Source: Pedobacter sandarakinus
GTDB lineage: Bacteria > Bacteroidota > Bacteroidia > Sphingobacteriales > Sphingobacteriaceae
DNA: 64,000 nt
Assembly: GCF_026240095.1 (NCBI RefSeq)
Contig: NZ_JAPIVG010000001.1
Span: forward strand, 558,001-622,000
Direction: 5' to 3'
The position numbers were made by a program, and so were the translations under genes. Of the stretch, positions 4,096-38,994 are shown in pieces. The notes under the pieces are model-generated. The model did not search any database and was not told the origin of the DNA. It saw nothing but the letters and a program-made list of their open reading frames with translations. The stretch's first letter is position 1. Each line of letters begins with the position of its first letter.

Positions 4096-4099
4096 TGTG

Positions 4100-4199
4100 C
4101 TTATTAAGAAAGACGGAGGGATTAGACCCAACGATGTCTTAGCAACCTGTGCCAACAAGGTGCTAAATTCTAATCTCAGCAGTGGCGAGAGAAGATAAG
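4100..4199 (+). promoter_or_regulatory. SAM-I (S-box) riboswitch upstream of metH
   Basis: The leader shows the S-box core in order: P1 5' strand CTTAT, AAGAAAGACGGAGGGA, then GACCCAACGATGTCTTAGCAACC, a P3 arm (TGTGCCAACAAGGTGC), a P4 arm, and the closing GAGAGAAGATAAG whose ATAAG pairs with the opening CTTAT. SAM binding would repress the downstream metH-metF unit. No stem with a U-run follows the aptamer before metH, so control may act on translation rather than termination. The short open frame that covers it (4013-4198) is not a gene. Confidence 0.92.
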
Positions 4200-4374
4200 T
4201 TTAGGAAGTACAATCATGTGCCAACTTTTTAAATAAGCTATTTAAGTATCAACATTAAGTATTGGGTTTTAAACACCTGGGTTGCGTATACTCAGTTCCA
4301 TTTTTACATTTCCTATTAAACTAGGGAAGTCTTAATAATGGATTCTTGCTACTTGATACTAACCATCAACGACA

Positions 4375-15431: not shown

Positions 15432-15572
15432 TCATTCCCATTTATAGAAAAGGTACTTTAGTAATGCTTCGCCTACCGCAGCCCCGCCATCTACTACAAT
15501 CTTTTTGTGTTCTTATGCCAGGTAAACAGTGGCAATGTAGTAGGCAAGCAAATGCTTTTTCTCTTGGTCGTT
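15432..15572 (-). pseudogene. probable remnant of a decayed gene
   Basis: In the otherwise empty region 15296-15682 one minus-strand frame reads like protein on both sides of an in-frame TAA: NDQEKKHLLAYYIATVYLA, stop, then EHKKIVVDGGAAVGEALLKY and a few more residues before a second stop. The segment after the first stop has ordinary coding composition. I do not recognise the family. The surrounding bases give nothing coherent. It may be the tail of a gene lost by deletion. Confidence is low because the stretch is short. Confidence 0.3.
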
Positions 15573-15682
15573 GCAACAAAAAGTATTTTCGTGCCTGTCT
15601 GGTTTAATTTAATTTAGGCAGTTATACTATTGGCGTAGCAAACTCGCTTGGCAACGTAAATGTCTGCGAAGATGTGCAGGTG

Positions 15683-16320: not shown

Positions 16321-16464
16321 ACTGAACGGCAATGGAAGTGAAACGTTACCAGCGCAAGTTTATAAACCTGATTGCCGCAGCATCCTTTTGGTGTGATAGA
16401 GGAAAGAGCCGCGGGAGCCAAAAGATAGCGCAAAAAGCAGGGCTGGTGTTACCAATTGTTCAGT
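16321..16464 (+). ncRNA. structured intergenic element (possible Bacteroidota dispersed RNA/repeat)
   Basis: The 458 bp between the GyrI-like gene and the helicase contain a clearly structured block. ACTGAAC (16321) and GTTCAGT (16458) bound it as inverted ends. CGGCAAT (16327) pairs with ATTGCCG (16371). CCTG (16367) pairs with CAGG (16438), enclosing CTTTTGG (16385) paired with CCAAAAG (16418). The core pattern (CCTGATTG, CATCCTTTT, AAAAGATAGCG, AAGCAGG) resembles, from memory, a dispersed structured element frequent between genes in flavobacteria and sphingobacteria; Rfam families such as Flavo-1 or Pedo-repair are candidates to compare. The strand is uncertain. No coding sequence is evident here. 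Confidence 0.5.
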
Positions 16465-16590
16465 AACTTGGTTTTTCAAATTCAAGGGATAACTAAATCG
16501 CTATTTCTTATAAATGATAGTTACTTTTGTGCTAAAATTGTTAGCTTTAAATTATCCCTCCAAAAGAAAAGCAAAAAAATTTTATTACCA

Positions 16591-18861
16591 ATGCCACAAC
16601 AAGAAGAAACTTCAAGGGCTGCAGAAATTGCGGCTAAGTTTGTTAATTATACCTCGAAACATGTTTTCTTAACGGGAAAAGCCGGAACAGGTAAAACCAC
16701 CTTTTTGCGAAAGCTGATTCATCTTACACATAAAAAAGCTATCATTTGCGCACCTACCGGCATTGCCGCCATTAACGCTGCAGGGGTTACCATTCATTCG
16801 CTTTTTCAGCTTCCTTTTGGTGCCTTTTTTCCGGATATGGCTGCCAGCATGGGTCAACAGAATATTAATTTTAATTTCAATACGCCCAGAACGATTGTAA
16901 AACACCTAAACATGCAAAGCAACAAGCGGCGATTGTTACAGGAGTTGGAACTACTGGTAATTGATGAGGTGAGTATGCTTCGAGCCGACATGCTCGATGC
17001 CATTGACTTTTCGCTGCGTTACATTCGCAGAAATAGAAATGTGCCTTTCGGTGGGGTTCAACTCTTATTTATAGGCGATTTACACCAGTTGCCGCCAGTA
17101 GTTAAAAATGATGAGTGGCGAGTGATGGCTGGATTTTACAAGAGTATTTATTTTTTTGATGCCTTGGCGCTTAGGCTAAACCCACCGATCTATATCGAAC
17201 TTGATAAAATTTACCGCCAGGATGATGCGACTTTTATTAATTTATTAAACAACCTACGTAACAATCAAATTAATGCGGATGATACGACACTTTTAAGATC
17301 GCATTATCAACAGGATTTTAAGCCCACGGCCGACGAAAATTACATTACGCTTACTACGCACAACAACAAGGCTGATACCATAAACCGAGAACGATTAACC
17401 CAGTTAAATGGCAAATCGTACTTTTTCGAGGCTAAAACCACGGGAGAGTTTAATGAATATGCTTACCCAAACGATAAGCGTTTGGAGCTTAAAGTTGGGG
17501 CGCAAATTATGTTTATAAAAAACGATATGAGCGCCGAAAAACGGTATTATAATGGTAAAATAGGAGTAATACATCATATTGAGAAAGATACCATTGAAGT
17601 TGAATTACCAGAAGAAAAGAAGGTAATTGAGCTTTCGCCGTATACGTGGGAAAATGTGAAATACAAGCTTAACGAGGCCACAAACGAAATTGATGAAACC
17701 GTAGCCGGATCTTTTATACAGTATCCGATTAAACTGGCCTGGGCGATTACTGTACATAAAAGTCAGGGTTTAACTTTTGATAAGGCCATTATCGATATCG
17801 GCGATGCTTTTGCCCCAGGGCAGGCTTATGTGGCACTATCGCGACTCCGCTCGCTAAATGGCTTGGTTCTGACTTCGCACTTACGGGAAAGTGGGCTGCA
17901 GCTCGATCAGAATATCCATTATTTTGCTAAAACAAAACAGTCTGCTGAGGTTTTACATGACCAAATTAGTGTGGAGAGCTACGATTTTATAAAGACATAT
18001 TTAATCGCTGCTTTCGATTTGAACCTAACACGATATTATCTTAAAGAGCATGTAGAAACGTTCGACAAAAGCGAGGCGAAATCTACCAAACAACGTTATG
18101 ACGGATGGACAATGCAGCTGTATAAAGACTTTCAGCAAATTGCTGCTACGGCAGATACTTTTGTAAATCAGCTTAAGAACATGTTTGCTGATAGAAACGA
18201 ACACACGCTGTCTAATATTTCTAAGCGGGTTGGCGCAGCGCTGAAATATTTTAATCCATTAATTAAAGAAATTTCTGACAGGCTGCTGGCTCAAATCGAA
18301 GCTATAAAAGAGGAGAAAGGTGTAAAGACTTACCTCACCGAATTGCTCGAGCTGGAGATACTGGTTTATGAGCAGTTAAAGAAAATACACAAAAGCAAAG
18401 CACTTTTGCTGGCCATAATAGATGGCAAGGAGTTTAGTAAAGCAGATACCGAAGCGTTGTTGAATACTGCCGAAAGGAATGAGCAGCTACAAAAAGCGCT
18501 ACAATTGAAAGGTGCTACCTTGAAGGTAAAAAGTGCAACGGAGAAAAAGAAAAAAGAGCCGAAAGTTGATACAAAGCTGGTAAGTTTTGAGCTGTACGAA
18601 CAGGGAAAAACAGTCGCTGAAATAGCGAAAGAACGTGGTTTTTCAGTGGCTACAATTGAAGGTCATTTGGCTTATTATGTTGCAAACCAGCAGTTGGATG
18701 TTAGCAAACTGGTTAAACCAAATAAGATTAGAAACATTAGCGATGCTATTGAAAGCTTAAAGACAAAATCAATGTCGAACATTAGAGATTTTTTGGGTAA
18801 GGATTATTCTTTCGGTGAGATTAAACTGGTGCTGGCATCGTTGTTTCCGTCTGAAGAATAG
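16591..18861 (+). CDS. PIF1/RecD-like superfamily 1 helicase with C-terminal HTH domain
   Basis: ATP-dependent DNA helicase of the PIF1-like group. I chose the ATG at 16591 (756 residues). The frame is open to 16456, but those codons overlap the structured element and add no conserved sequence. Walker A is GKAGTGKTT at about 29-37, Walker B is LVIDEVSM near 117, and GDLHQLPPV is motif III. The UvrD-C-like motif AWAITVHKSQGLTFDKAIID and YVALSRLRSLNGLVL (motif VI) follow. After a charged middle region the last 100 residues contain a helix-turn-helix of the HTH_40 type (EQGKTVAEIAKERGFSVATI), as seen at the end of RecQ-like proteins. Likely roles are replication-fork or repair functions. The gene is isolated from its neighbours. 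Confidence 0.9.
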   Translation: MPQQEETSRAAEIAAKFVNYTSKHVFLTGKAGTGKTTFLRKLIHLTHKKAIICAPTGIAAINAAGVTIHSLFQLPFGAFFPDMAASMGQQNINFNFNTPRTIVKHLNMQSNKRRLLQELELLVIDEVSMLRADMLDAIDFSLRYIRRNRNVPFGGVQLLFIGDLHQLPPVVKNDEWRVMAGFYKSIYFFDALALRLNPPIYIELDKIYRQDDATFINLLNNLRNNQINADDTTLLRSHYQQDFKPTADENYITLTTHNNKADTINRERLTQLNGKSYFFEAKTTGEFNEYAYPNDKRLELKVGAQIMFIKNDMSAEKRYYNGKIGVIHHIEKDTIEVELPEEKKVIELSPYTWENVKYKLNEATNEIDETVAGSFIQYPIKLAWAITVHKSQGLTFDKAIIDIGDAFAPGQAYVALSRLRSLNGLVLTSHLRESGLQLDQNIHYFAKTKQSAEVLHDQISVESYDFIKTYLIAAFDLNLTRYYLKEHVETFDKSEAKSTKQRYDGWTMQLYKDFQQIAATADTFVNQLKNMFADRNEHTLSNISKRVGAALKYFNPLIKEISDRLLAQIEAIKEEKGVKTYLTELLELEILVYEQLKKIHKSKALLLAIIDGKEFSKADTEALLNTAERNEQLQKALQLKGATLKVKSATEKKKKEPKVDTKLVSFELYEQGKTVAEIAKERGFSVATIEGHLAYYVANQQLDVSKLVKPNKIRNISDAIESLKTKSMSNIRDFLGKDYSFGEIKLVLASLFPSEE

Positions 18862-18897: not shown

Positions 18898-19896
18898 GAG
18901 CTTGGTGTCGATGAAGACTCTTTCGATCTAATTATGTTGCGTTAATTAGGTTTTGTGGCTATTGTTATATACAATATTTTTCAACCATATACGACATGTA
19001 AGAACATATGAGCTTAGTGTCGATGAAAGCTCTGTCGATGTCATTATGTTGCGTTGATTGGGATTTGTATATTGTTATGTGCAATATTTTTGAATCATAT
19101 AAGACATGCAAGAACATATATGAGCTTAGTGTCGATGAATGCTCTGTCGATATCATTATGTTGCGTTGATTGGGATTTGTGGATTGTTATGCGCAATATT
19201 TTTGAACCATATAAGACATATAAGAACATATGAGCTTGGTGTCGATGAAAGCTCTGTCGATCTAATTATGTTGCGTTGATTGGGATTTGTGTATTGTTAT
19301 GTGCAATATTTTTGAACCATATACGACATGTAAGAACATATGAGCTTAGTGTCGATGAAAGCTCTTTCGATCTAATCATGTTGCGTTAATAAGGATTTGT
19401 GGCTATTGTTATGTACAATATTTTTGAACCATATAAGACATATAAGGACATATGAGCTTAGTGTCGATGAATGGCGTTGATTGGGATTTGTGGATTGTTA
19501 TGCGCAATATTTTTGAACCATATACGACATGTAAGAACATATGAGCTTGGTGTCGATGAAAGCTCTGTCGATATAATTATGTTGCGTTGATTGGGATTTG
19601 TGGATTGTTATGTGCAATATTTTTGAACCATATACGACATGTAAGAACATATGAGCTTAGTGTCGATGAAAGCTCTGTCGATCTAATCATGTTGCGTTGA
19701 TTGGGATTTGTGGATTGTTATGCGCAATATTTTTGAACCATATAAGACATATAAGAACATATGAGCTTGGTGTCGATGAAAGCTCTGTCGATACAATTAT
19801 GTTGCGTTGATTGGGATTTGTGGATTGTTATGTGCAATATTTTTGAACCATATACGACATGTAAGAACATATGAGCTTAGTGTCGATGAAGACTTT
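18898..19896 (+). repeat. tandem array of about nine 110-bp repeats upstream of the GxxExxY gene
   Basis: Units begin with GAGCTTRGTGTCGATGA at 18898, 19010, 19122, 19232, 19342, 19454, 19543, 19653 and 19763, with a partial unit at 19873. Lengths are 112, 112, 110, 110, 112, 89, 110, 110 and 110 bp; the sixth lacks about 22 bp. Each holds GAGCTT...AAGCTC as a small inverted repeat, TGCAATATTTTTGAACC, and a core of three phased CATAT motifs (ACCATATAAGACATATAAG plus AACATAT). The first and last units share a GAAGACT variant. No gene is supported in this stretch; the frame at 18965-19156 is repeat translation. Confidence 0.97.
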
Positions 19897-19963
19897 GATG
19901 GCCTATTGTGTCAATAAAGTATGCTTTTAAAAATAGATCTTTTAATTATAAATATAATATTGT

Positions 19964-20377
19964 ATGAGCTTGATGAATAAGGAGGCACTGAAAAATCTAG
20001 TGTATAAAATCAATGGGGCCGCAATTGAAGTTCATAAAGCCCTCGGTCCTGGGCTTTTGGAAAGCGTTTATCAGAAATGCTTGAATCATGAATTAACATT
20101 AATAGGATTGAACTATAAATCTGAAATGTTATTAACTATTGAGTACAAAGGCATGGAGGTCCACACGGAATTGCGTTGCGATCTATTTGTAGAGGACAGC
20201 ATCGTTGTCGAACTAAAATCGGTGGAAAAAGTATTGCCGATACATGAGGCCCAAATTCTTACTTATATGAAAATGCTTGAGGTACCTATGGGACTGATTA
20301 TTAACTTTAATTGTATAAATATATTTTCGGGAGGACAAAAAACTTATGTCAATGACTTATATAGATTGCTTCCATAA
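19964..20377 (+). CDS. GxxExxY protein (PD-(D/E)XK nuclease fold)
   Basis: A 137-residue protein of the GxxExxY family. The naming motif is GPGLLESVYQKCLNHEL (about 27-43). It is followed by LLTIEYKGMEVHTELRCDLFVED and IVVELKSVEKVLPIHEAQ, where the Asp and the Glu-Leu-Lys form the D-(E)XK arrangement typical of this fold; LTYMKMLEVPMGLIINFN ends the domain. Family members are of unknown function, though the fold predicts nucleic-acid cleavage. The gene stands alone between two different tandem-repeat arrays. The ATG lies in ATGAGCTTGATGAA, which resembles the repeat sequence ATGAGCTTRGTGTCGATGAA upstream. The family call is firm; the role is open. Confidence 0.9.
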   Translation: MSLMNKEALKNLVYKINGAAIEVHKALGPGLLESVYQKCLNHELTLIGLNYKSEMLLTIEYKGMEVHTELRCDLFVEDSIVVELKSVEKVLPIHEAQILTYMKMLEVPMGLIINFNCINIFSGGQKTYVNDLYRLLP

Positions 20378-20390
20378 AATATTTCGATTT

Positions 20391-20910
20391 AGACTTATAT
20401 GTTCTTATATGTCTTACATGGTGAAAATAGAAAACATATCCATGAGCCATAGCCTTATATGTACTATACTGTAAAAAAATAAACTTATCCACCAGCGATA
20501 GACTTATATGTTCTTATATGTCTTACATGGTGAAAATAGAAAACTTATCCGTGAGCCCTAGACTGATAAGTCTTACACGATAAAATAAAAAACTTATCCA
20601 TGAGCCCTAGACTGATAAGTCTTACACGGTAAAATGAAAAACTTATCAATGAGCCATAGACTGATAAGTCTTACACGATAAAATAAAAAACTTATCAAAG
20701 AGCCATAGACTTATATTTACTATACTGTAAAAAAATAAACTTATCCATGAGCGATAGACTTATATGTTCTTATATGTCTTACATGGTGAAAGTAAAAAAC
20801 TTGTCAATGAGCCCTAGACTTATATGTACTATACAGTTAAAAAAAATAAACTTATCCACGAGCGATAGATTTATATGTTCTTACATGGTGAAAGAAGAAG
20901 CTTATTAACT
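20391..20910 (+). repeat. array of ten 49-60-bp repeats downstream of the GxxExxY gene
   Basis: Units start with AGAC (or AGCC/AGAT) at 20391, 20451, 20500, 20560, 20609, 20658, 20707, 20756, 20816 and 20867. Three types are mixed. The 60-bp type (20391, 20500, 20756) contains CTTATATGTTCTTATATG followed by TCTTACATGGT. A 49-51-bp type (20451, 20707, 20816) contains TATATKTACTATAC. A 49-bp type (20560, 20609, 20658) contains ACTGATAAGTCTTACACG. All share an end near AAACTTATCCATGAGCCCT. The 60-bp type carries the reverse complement of the core of the upstream 110-bp array. From 20911 to the promoter at 21032 I see nothing. Confidence 0.95.
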
Positions 20911-21066: not shown

Positions 21067-21675
21067 ATGGAAAAAGTTGATGTTTTAGCGCAATACCTGC
21101 CCACGAAAGCCGCTCCATTGATTGCAAGGTGGATAGACTATTTTCAGTGCGAATTTAAAATTTCCAAAACACGCACGACCAAATTGGGCGATTACCGCCA
21201 TCCCTATGGTGGTAAAGGACATCGCATCTCGGTAAATTTCAATCTGAATCAATTTGCATTCTTAGTTACAACCGTGCACGAATTTGCACACTTACTGACT
21301 TGGAACGACTTTAAAAACAAAGTTAAACCGCATGGTGCAGAGTGGAAAAAGAACTTCCAACGGATGATGATACCTTTTTTTGAAATGAATATCTTCCCAG
21401 ATGATATCCATCGGGCGATAGACAACTATATGGCCAACCCGGCAGCTTCCAGTTGCGCTGATTTAGGTTTATCAAGAGCATTAAAAAAATACGACAGCAA
21501 CCGGGCAGAAACGCTACACCTGGAGCAGTTGCCACTAAATACCAAGTTTAAAATACCAGATGGACGCCAGTTTACCAAAGGCGAACGTATAAGAAAACGC
21601 TACCGTTGTGTATGTTTAAACGATAAGCGAATCTATCTGTTCAACCCGCTTGCTACTGTTTTCCCTGTCGACTGA
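21067..21675 (+). CDS. SprT-like zinc metalloprotein
   Basis: A 202-residue cytoplasmic protein with the SprT-type zinc site TVHEFAHLLTW (His71, Glu72, His75) and a third likely ligand in KPHGAEWKKNF. SprT/Spartan relatives cleave proteins cross-linked to DNA; bacterial SprT members are mostly uncharacterised. The segment before the site (RTTKLGDYRHPYGGKGHRIS) is the conserved beta-hairpin region. A beta-rich C-terminus (IRKRYRCVCLNDKRIYLFNP) lacks a full Cys4 zinc ribbon. It is an independent unit with its own promoter. Confidence 0.88.
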   Translation: MEKVDVLAQYLPTKAAPLIARWIDYFQCEFKISKTRTTKLGDYRHPYGGKGHRISVNFNLNQFAFLVTTVHEFAHLLTWNDFKNKVKPHGAEWKKNFQRMMIPFFEMNIFPDDIHRAIDNYMANPAASSCADLGLSRALKKYDSNRAETLHLEQLPLNTKFKIPDGRQFTKGERIRKRYRCVCLNDKRIYLFNPLATVFPVD

Positions 21676-37607: not shown

Positions 37608-38804
37608 TCAATTGGACTTCCTGGTTAAGTTGTAAATACCAAGCACAGGCCCAACGGCCAAAACTAAATAAAGATACTGGGAATTTATCTCTTTTGATAA
37701 TATGTTTACAACCTGGATACTTACAATTGTTACGGCAAAGCCGATGCAGTTGACGAGTGTAAGTGAAGTTCCCCGTAATGCTTCGGGTGCATTTTTAGCA
37801 ATTAAAGATGAAAATAAAGGCGAATCTGCCGTGCTGGATAAACCCCAGGTAAAAAGAAAAATAACTAAGGCATACACCGAATTGCTAAACAAAAAAACAG
37901 GTGAGAACAGACAGCATAACCCCGATATAGCAAGGGCAACCATAGCAATTGGCTTGGCGCCGATTTTTTGAGATAACAAGCCACCCAACATGCAAGATAT
38001 CCCGCCCGAACCTATCACTAGGAAAGAGAATAATGGAATATTTAATGATGCTGATGGATGCATCTGGTTATAATGTAAGAGCATAGCCGGCAAGAAAGCC
38101 CAAAAGGTATACAATTCCCACATGTGACCGAAATAGCCAATTGCGGCCGACCTAAAACCTATATTTTCGAAGCCACTTAAACAAGATTTGAAATTAAATT
38201 TTTGCCCTGGCTTCCTAAATGGTCCATCTGGCACAAAAAGAAAAATGCTACACGCACCTATTACCGACAAAGCGGAAGTACTGAAAATAACAAATCTCCA
38301 TGGTATGTTGGTGGTAAAGGTTTTTAGAAGGTGCGGAAATGCGGTACCCAACACCAAAGCACCCACCAAAAATCCAAGTGATTTACCTAACCCATCTTTA
38401 AAATAATCGGATGCGATTTTCATCCCGACAGGATAAATCCCGGCAAGCATTAGGCCGGTTAAGAACCGAAAAAGTAATACTAACCGCACATCTTGTAATG
38501 CATAGCAAAGGGCCAGGTTGAATAGCGCCGCAGCCAAACCACAAACGAAAAAAACTTTCGATGGCGAAAAAAAATCGGAAATGGTAAAGATGGCGAACAC
38601 AAGTGTGCCGGTGATAAAACCAAATTGAACCATACTGGTTAAATTGGCCAAAAGATTGATTTCGGAGGGAAAATTTTTTAAGATATCGGGTAAAACTGCG
38701 TTGCCTGCAAACCATAATGAGGTGCATAAAAATTGCGACAGTACGATTACTGGGAGGATTTTGCTGTTACCGTTCATTTTTTCTTGATGCACAAGTTTAA
38801 CCAA
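37608..38804 (-). CDS. major facilitator superfamily transporter
   Basis: Inner-membrane secondary transporter with about twelve hydrophobic helices in 398 residues. The first segment MNGNSKILPVIVLSQFLCTSLWFAGNA suggests the start may be Met10 (38777) rather than 38804. A loop with SDFFSPSKVFFVCG and the FRFLTGLMLAGIYPVGMKIASDYF segment fit the drug/anion-type MFS pattern (GxxxGxxxPxxxK after helix 4). The substrate is unknown. It precedes a frameshifted small membrane gene and a sulfurtransferase, perhaps one transcript. Confidence 0.88.
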   Translation of the reverse strand: MVKLVHQEKMNGNSKILPVIVLSQFLCTSLWFAGNAVLPDILKNFPSEINLLANLTSMVQFGFITGTLVFAIFTISDFFSPSKVFFVCGLAAALFNLALCYALQDVRLVLLFRFLTGLMLAGIYPVGMKIASDYFKDGLGKSLGFLVGALVLGTAFPHLLKTFTTNIPWRFVIFSTSALSVIGACSIFLFVPDGPFRKPGQKFNFKSCLSGFENIGFRSAAIGYFGHMWELYTFWAFLPAMLLHYNQMHPSASLNIPLFSFLVIGSGGISCMLGGLLSQKIGAKPIAMVALAISGLCCLFSPVFLFSNSVYALVIFLFTWGLSSTADSPLFSSLIAKNAPEALRGTSLTLVNCIGFAVTIVSIQVVNILSKEINSQYLYLVLAVGPVLGIYNLTRKSN

Positions 38805-38847
38805 AATAAACCTGATAGCAGTAGAAATATTTTTGATGTTTCTAGCG

Positions 38848-38994
38848 CTAAAAAACGAACTGCCATTTCCTGGTGGCCATTACGAAAATGGTAAGGATGG
38901 CCAAGCTAAAAATATTGGAACGCATAGCAGGACTTTCGGAACCGATGGAATGCAGGCCTTGCTTTTCAAATAATTTAATTAAAAAAACATTCAC
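38848..38994 (-). CDS. possible 48-residue membrane peptide with GTG start
   Basis: The 298-bp gap between the MFS gene and the NHL-repeat gene holds a minus-strand frame from GTG at 38994 to TAG at 38848. It reads MNVFLIKLFEKQGLHSIGS, ESPAMRSNIFSLAILTIFV and MATRKWQFVF: one hydrophobic helix flanked by basic residues. The first ATG nearby is out of frame. It could be a genuine small protein or the end of a decayed membrane gene. I do not recognise it. Confidence 0.25.
   Translation of the reverse strand: MNVFLIKLFEKQGLHSIGSESPAMRSNIFSLAILTIFVMATRKWQFVF

What the first reader, a model, noticed from the sequence alone, without database searches (positions are those of the whole stretch)
18898..20910. 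GxxExxY nuclease-fold gene framed by two repeat arrays that share an inverted core
Seen directly: about nine 110-bp tandem repeats lie upstream of the GxxExxY gene and ten 49-60-bp repeats lie downstream, with no other gene in about 2 kb. The upstream unit contains ACCATATAAGACATATAAG followed by AACATAT. The 60-bp downstream units contain the reverse complement of nearly the same stretch, so the gene sits between inverted copies of one core. The family has a PD-(D/E)XK nuclease fold and no known function. A lone nuclease-fold gene inside matching repeats suggests that the protein acts on or copies the repeats, or that the whole is a mobile or selfish element.
Basis: partly seen in the sequence, partly recalled or inferred. 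Interest (0 to 1): 0.85.

Follow-up and report, generated by a model that had tools for sequence, protein, structure and literature searches.

The report
Selfish nuclease gene with word-coded ends
A small gene for a predicted Cas4-like DNA-cutting protein, found across many bacterial phyla, is often bracketed by inverted copies of a short repeated DNA word that differs with the protein, and the unit is likely a selfish element whose enzyme would recognise and spread its own ends, also as gene-less repeats.

Summary
In detail: nine forward copies of CCATATAAG-ACATATAAG-AACATAT precede the GxxExxY gene and three clear inverse copies follow; shuffles give none. But the arrays are a local growth of a simpler anatomy. 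In two relatives at the same site the gene sits between single inverted "arms", each 2-3 direct copies of an 8-10-bp word. Of 111 GxxExxY loci from many phyla, 74 have matching inverted arms, against 1 of 45 ordinary window genes. The word differs between loci, agrees between the arms of a locus, and follows the protein rather than the site. Gene-less arms (solo, hairpin, array) are scattered: the window's arm occurs in 41 of 119 same-genus genomes, all with a PF13366 match, and in none of the 42 without. The protein is predicted to be a minimal Cas4/RecB-like nuclease with its catalytic set intact. I read it as a selfish, REP/RAYT-like element with an unrelated enzyme. Four-helix-bundle (PF05635) genes show the same design. 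Against: 37 of 111 loci lack detected arms, no clean empty site was found, and movement and cutting are untested.

The parts
18898..19890 (+). 5' array: about nine ~110-bp units, each a forward arm (CATATAAG word x3) plus ~80 bp of spacer found in the own genome only at this locus
18985..19009 (+). first forward arm of the 5' array
19207..19231 (+). forward arm, exact consensus
19738..19762 (+). forward arm, exact consensus
19848..19872 (+). forward arm nearest the gene
19964..20377 (+). GxxExxY gene (PF13366/TIGR04256), 137 aa; predicted PD-(D/E)XK nuclease with E33, D73, E83, K85, Q97, Y101
20390..20887 (-). 3' array of inverse arms, complete and degenerate, units of 49-60 bp
20397..20421 (-). 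inverse arm nearest the gene
20506..20530 (-). inverse arm
20762..20786 (-). inverse arm
16558..18861 (+). left neighbour, PIF1-like helicase with HTH_40 (not part of the element; marks the site)
21067..21675 (+). right neighbour, SprT-like gene (not part of the element; marks the site)

Best explanation
The locus is a cassette in which one small gene for a predicted Cas4/RecB-like nuclease lies between inverted arms built from 2-3 direct copies of a short word, and it is likely a selfish, transposon-like element whose protein would recognise that word in its own ends and in gene-less copies elsewhere in the genome and would cut or nick there. Shown: the anatomy; its recurrence across phyla; the match of word between the two arms and between arm and protein; gene-less arms, hairpins and arrays in genomes that carry the family; different arm+gene types at one site. 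Inferred: the protein binds the word; cutting starts copying or repair that inserts arms and cassettes into intergenic DNA; re-copying from adjacent arms makes the ~110-bp tandem arrays (arm plus the ~80 bp next to it). In the window both single arms would have grown into arrays in this way.
Against: No clean empty site or target-site duplication was found; no helicase match lies in the ~1.2 kb fetched upstream of SprT in any of 20 GxxExxY-less genomes. 37 of 111 loci show no matched arms by this alignment. The matrix also hits the unexpected orientation (58 hits) and the gene body (28). 10 of 30 loci at the ligA-dapA site and 20 of 30 at the window site hold the gene across the genus, so it also persists in place. 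A relative (L200 protein) is rare on plasmids (6 of 72,556 records) and the window protein has no match in 50,697 phage records. 16 of 48 genomes with the window subfamily lack the core, and 9 of 41 with the core lack that subfamily. Co-occurrence counts ignore phylogeny; the GxxExxY-less genomes look like one part of the genus. No Foldseek match reaches E 0.001. No assay links protein and arms.
Confidence: 0.62

Rival explanations
1. Homing-like drive: the nuclease cuts arms already present at other loci, and host repair copies the cassette (or its arms) into the break, so existing arms, not random DNA, are the targets.
For: Repeated use of the same sites, nested arms of two or three words (L222, L219, L254) and different cassettes at the window site; gene-less arms are abundant in many genomes that carry the gene.
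Against: The nested arms carry different words, so the incoming cassette did not simply match the resident arm; the cassette does not interrupt its own recognition arm, as homing genes usually do (recalled).
Confidence: 0.18
2. RNA-level element: the two arms pair in the transcript, giving a stem around the gene that stabilises or processes its mRNA (as RNase III does for a 23S rRNA intervening sequence); repeats are passive slippage products.
For: Inverted arms could pair over ~25 bp; the Coxiella 23S rRNA intervening sequence, which encodes S23p, is excised by RNase III (PMC4990558, abstract read).
Against: Differences between arms do not favour G-U-compatible changes in the sense transcript: 91 compatible against 125 incompatible (broad set), 14 against 28 loci. 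Arms without a gene, in one orientation only, are common, and no Rfam family above threshold covers the array. The excess would fit an antisense RNA or strand bias, not tested further.
Confidence: 0.1
3. Passive repeats with a host-useful nuclease: the arms are regulatory or slippage-prone repeats that tolerate the gene, and the protein has some other job such as defence or repair.
For: Long persistence at two sites in the genus; rarity on plasmids and no phage match.
Against: Word follows protein subfamily between sites and differs with it at one site; decayed copies occur; copy number in the genus varies from 0 to 12.
Confidence: 0.08
4. Chance adjacency of a nuclease gene and two unrelated repeat arrays.
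For: Most GxxExxY loci have no array and most sampled arm loci have no gene.
Against: All.
Confidence: 0.02

Closest known systems
REP sequences / REPINs with RAYT (TnpA-REP)
   Same: Short repeat ends tied to one gene family, with gene-less copies of the same ends dispersed in extragenic DNA of genomes that carry the gene (PMC8266576 and PMC2817692, seen in search listings only; details recalled).
   Different: The RAYT enzyme is a Y1 HUH transposase (recalled); here the only protein is a PD-(D/E)XK fold, and the ends are 2-3 direct words facing each other rather than one palindrome.
23S rRNA intervening sequences encoding S23p / four-helix-bundle proteins (PF05635)
   Same: One small orphan gene in a unit called selfish in print (PMC4990558, abstract read). 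Here 23 of 33 PF05635 loci show matched inverted word arms.
   Different: Unrelated protein; the published unit lies in 23S rRNA, this one between protein genes.
Insertion sequences and MITEs
   Same: Inverted ends around one gene, internally deleted and hairpin derivatives.
   Different: No known transposase family matches; no target duplication found; ends are iterated words.
Cas4 / RecB-family nucleases
   Different: The window protein has 137 aa, its neighbours are not CRISPR genes, and its arrays hold no unique spacers.
Rpn / transposase_31 (PF04754)
   Same: Protein family linked to DNA mobilisation (PMC5350276, listing with start of abstract); PD-(D/E)XK fold recalled.
   Different: The window protein matches only PF13366; I know of no word arms for Rpn (recalled).

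Membership tests
GxxExxY / PDDEXK_3 (TIGR04256, PF13366) | score above curated cut-off | tested here: met
   135.8 bits (cut-off 35) and 132.9 bits (cut-off 22)
GxxExxY / PDDEXK_3 (TIGR04256, PF13366) | intact catalytic residues of a PD-(D/E)XK nuclease | tested here: met
   E33, D73, E83, K85, Q97, Y101 present in the window protein and invariant or 90% and more conserved in 85 sequences; assignment of roles recalled
REP/RAYT | Y1 HUH transposase (IS200/IS605-like; recalled) | tested here: not met
   only PF13366 matches; the best fold matches are PD-(D/E)XK nucleases
REP/RAYT | gene-less copies of the gene's ends elsewhere in the same genome | tested here: met
   three gene-less arrays in the own genome; 27 of 30 arm loci gene-less
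IS / MITE | inverted repeats at both ends of one gene | tested here: met
IS / MITE | target-site duplication or precise empty site | tested here: inconclusive
   sites compared are polymorphic or not comparable; none gave a clean filled/empty pair
IS / MITE | known transposase family | tested here: not met
   Pfam gives PF13366 only
CRISPR-Cas (Cas4) | array of identical repeats with unique spacers, cas1/cas2 nearby | tested here: not met
   the whole 110-bp unit repeats, spacer included; the two neighbours are a helicase and an SprT-like gene
23S rRNA intervening sequence (PF05635) | PF05635 protein | tested here: not met
23S rRNA intervening sequence (PF05635) | orphan gene between inverted word arms (a feature seen here, not taken from the literature) | tested here: met
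   23 of 33 PF05635 loci and 74 of 111 GxxExxY loci
Rpn / transposase_31 | PF04754 match | tested here: not met
   not among the matches

The most novel reading that the evidence does not exclude
GxxExxY cassettes are a phylum-spanning class of minimal selfish DNA elements whose only protein is a Cas4-like nuclease and whose ends are addressed by an iterated 8-10-bp word that each nuclease subfamily has changed for itself; four-helix-bundle (S23-type) genes are a second, unrelated protein that occupies the same element design, so 'word-arm' elements are a general kind of bacterial parasite that also seeds much of the gene-less repeat DNA of these genomes.
Probability: 0.42. Interest if true: 0.93.

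Novelty: new variant of a known kind. Interest (0 to 1): 0.82.

Why it matters
GxxExxY is a widespread orphan nuclease family; the two papers found that name it give it no function in the passages I saw, and the one paper that names PF13366 I did not open. Tying it to matching word-coded ends and to dispersed gene-less repeats gives it a testable job, would explain where many intergenic repeats of Bacteroidota come from, and offers a naturally varied set of small nucleases with readable DNA addresses. If the same design serves four-helix-bundle genes, two large families of unknown function fall under one principle.

Full report
What is there. The window lies in a 4.09-Mb genome. The reported arrays and gene are real. 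The 5' array has nine forward copies of CCATATAAGACATATAAGAACATAT; its units are 110-112 bp long except one of 89 bp. The 3' array has three clear and several degenerate inverse copies. I call each copy an arm: three near-copies of one 9-10-bp word, CATATAAG.

Own genome. There are four GxxExxY loci. The one at C1:135277 has word CACGGAA, forward on its 5' side and inverse on its 3' side, with its own 5' end duplicated together with an arm. The one at C1:755621 has a 5' array whose units hold an inverted pair of another word. The one at C1:89686 is broken by a stop and lies between GCCACAGATT and an imperfect inverse of it. CATATAAG arms also form three arrays without any GxxExxY gene, at C23:28.7-29.5 kb, C23:188.6-189.3 kb and C29:212.5-213.2 kb. 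Only the arm (about 26-37 bp) is shared with the window's unit; the ~80-bp spacer is different at each locus, while the spacing is about 105-131 bp.

The genus. 77 of 119 genomes (own included) have PF13366, with up to 12 copies; nine of these rest on weak hits only. Reading the flanks of the loci (its output was cut, so not all 30 were seen) showed the same anatomy at most of those shown. In gene orientation a forward arm stands before the gene and an inverse arm after it, usually beginning AACCAC or AACCAT, with words such as CACAAAG, CACAGAT, CGCAAAG and CATATAAG.

Statistics. For 113 loci (80 from the named scan, 30, 3 own) I aligned 350 nt of 5' flank with the reverse complement of the 3' flank; 111 had enough flank. 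74 of 111 exceed the 99% shuffle threshold, 53 of 78 in the broad set; direct orientation 32 of 111 (tandem copies among them); mismatched pairs 9.8%. Control genes: 1 of 45 in the window, 1 of 13 in the broad loci. The broad set spans Bacteroidota, Planctomycetota, Chloroflexota, Proteobacteria, Acidobacteria, Cyanobacteria, Armatimonadota and others; it is the 80 best of 579 confirmed stretches of a capped scan, not a census. The archaeal locus L161 shows no arms. A matrix from 15 genus arms applied to the 80 broad loci gave 50 5'-forward and 58 3'-inverse hits, against 30 5'-inverse, 28 3'-forward and 28 in gene bodies; 27 loci had both arms in the expected orientation and 5 in the opposite one.

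Same site, different cassette. At the window's site, helicase to SprT, 20 of the 30 loci fetched hold GxxExxY; two of the other ten lack the helicase neighbour. I read 14 of the 30 in full. The two with the window's subfamily (L223, L224; 74% and 73% identity) have single CATATAAG arms and no array. Nine others have another subfamily with CGCAAAG or CACAGAG arms. L222 keeps a CGCAAAG arm outside a CACAGAG cassette on the left, L219 one on the right. L210, L228 and L231 hold decayed genes between arms, and L207, L208, L225 and L235 show arm-like sequence without a gene (by eye). At ligA-dapA, 10 of 30 loci hold the gene, 5 hold solo arms or deleted cassettes (L093, L101, L103, L105, L114), and 15 hold a hairpin-like stretch of an unrelated word family (by eye). 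In L095 the 3' arm with the last ~80 bp of the gene is repeated, period 113 in the same locus as fetched earlier (L078), the same ruler as in the window.

Word and protein. Among loci with arms, protein identity correlates with arm similarity at different sites: genus n=54, rho 0.335; broad n=51, rho 0.429; 0 of 999 permutations each. Of 30 window-subfamily loci in the genus 17 show CATATAAG-like arms by eye; L273, L281 and L283 (59-61% identity) have CACAAAAG, L293 and L294 CACATAG, L288 CACCAAAG, and the rest no clear arm.

Copies in trans. The 28-nt core, up to 3 mismatches, occurs in 41 of 119 genomes; the same pattern read backwards occurs in none. All 41 have a PF13366 match (41 of 77 with, 0 of 42 without, p=1.1e-10); with the window subfamily the table is 32 both, 9 core only, 16 gene only, 62 neither (p=1.3e-9); these tests ignore phylogeny. 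None of the nine weak-hit genomes has the core. Of 30 arm loci, the best of each of 30 genomes, 27 have no gene within 1.5 kb. They are solo arms, same-orientation arrays or hairpins, some of them with two different words. At the dnaK terminator I read 13 of 30 loci: arms are present in L316, L317, L319, L323, L326 and L327, absent in L318, L320, L324 and L328, and partial or decayed in L321, L322 and L325. In L242 an arm lies 6-8 bases from where the homology to a gene with an open frame of 166-189 aa in four relatives stops.

A parallel. The own genome has four PF05635 genes; 73 of 119 genomes have them. Of 33 loci tested (30 and 3 own, the fourth with a stop left out), 23 have matched inverted arms (mismatched pairs 9.5%, direct orientation 4), with words such as GAGATTTGAGATTTGAG or GTTTTAAGTAATAAG. 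PF13366 and PF05635 co-occur in 68 genomes, neither in 37, PF13366 alone in 9 (the weak-hit genomes), PF05635 alone in 5. This may reflect one clade of the genus or a shared host factor.

Mechanism and limits. I commit to a selfish element in which the nuclease acts on its own word. The association, the word matching and the trans copies are shown; recognition, cutting and movement are inferred. Against it stand the 37 of 111 loci without detected arms, persistence at two sites, rarity on plasmids (L200 protein as query, 6 of 72,556 records) and no match for the window protein in 50,697 phage records, no clean empty site, and no biochemical test. Arm differences do not favour pairing in the sense RNA.

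Novelty. In the open library GxxExxY appears in 2 papers, one naming it next to a reverse transcriptase and one listing it in an algal virus (passages); PF13366/PDDEXK_3 appears in 1, not opened; six arm strings in none. Subscription papers are not covered. It works like REP/RAYT but is not a member, since the defining HUH enzyme is absent; hence 'new variant of a known kind', with the categorical reading kept as the novel case.

Noticed in passing
L236, L241, L244, L248, L253, L259, L055, L057: Flavo-1 RNA (RF01705; some hits below its gathering score) at E<=0.01 in 8 of 32 arm loci scanned, each within about 90 nt of an arm and on the arm's strand, against 0 of 18 ligA-dapA and SprT-site loci. 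It may mark shared intergenic hot spots or a composite element.
   Followed up: partly
window 38804-38938, 16360-16448 (and 15476-15609, weak): Flavo-1 RNA copies in the window, the first above the gathering score.
   Followed up: no
window 4098-4201: SAM riboswitch, 63.9 bits.
   Followed up: no
L246, L249, L254, L258: Chimeric structures: a forward CATATAAG arm paired with an inverse arm of another word; L254 has three forward arms of three words in a row (by eye).
   Followed up: no
L098, L102, L104, L107, L109-L113, L115, L117-L121: The ligA-dapA gap of 15 of 30 genomes holds one or more ~80-90-bp hairpin-like stretches of TGAATGATTGAATG-type words, perhaps a gene-less PF05635-type element.
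   Followed up: no
L210, L228, L231: A similar inserted stretch (TCTGATCGTCATGCTGAACTTGTTTCAGCATC...) interrupts or replaces decayed GxxExxY genes in three genomes.
   Followed up: no
L242 (G091:C1:778760-779410): Homology to a gene with an intact-looking frame in four relatives stops a few bases from a CATATAAG arm, as if the arm marked a rearrangement breakpoint.
   Followed up: partly
GxxExxY arm pairs: Differences between the two arms lean towards changes that would be G-U compatible in an antisense transcript (125 against 91, broad set); strand-composition bias is an untested alternative.
   Followed up: no
G000 C30:144424 and C30:145979 (L122, L124): Two PF05635 genes 1.6 kb apart in what looks like an arginine-biosynthesis cluster (by eye), one interrupted by a stop.
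   Followed up: no
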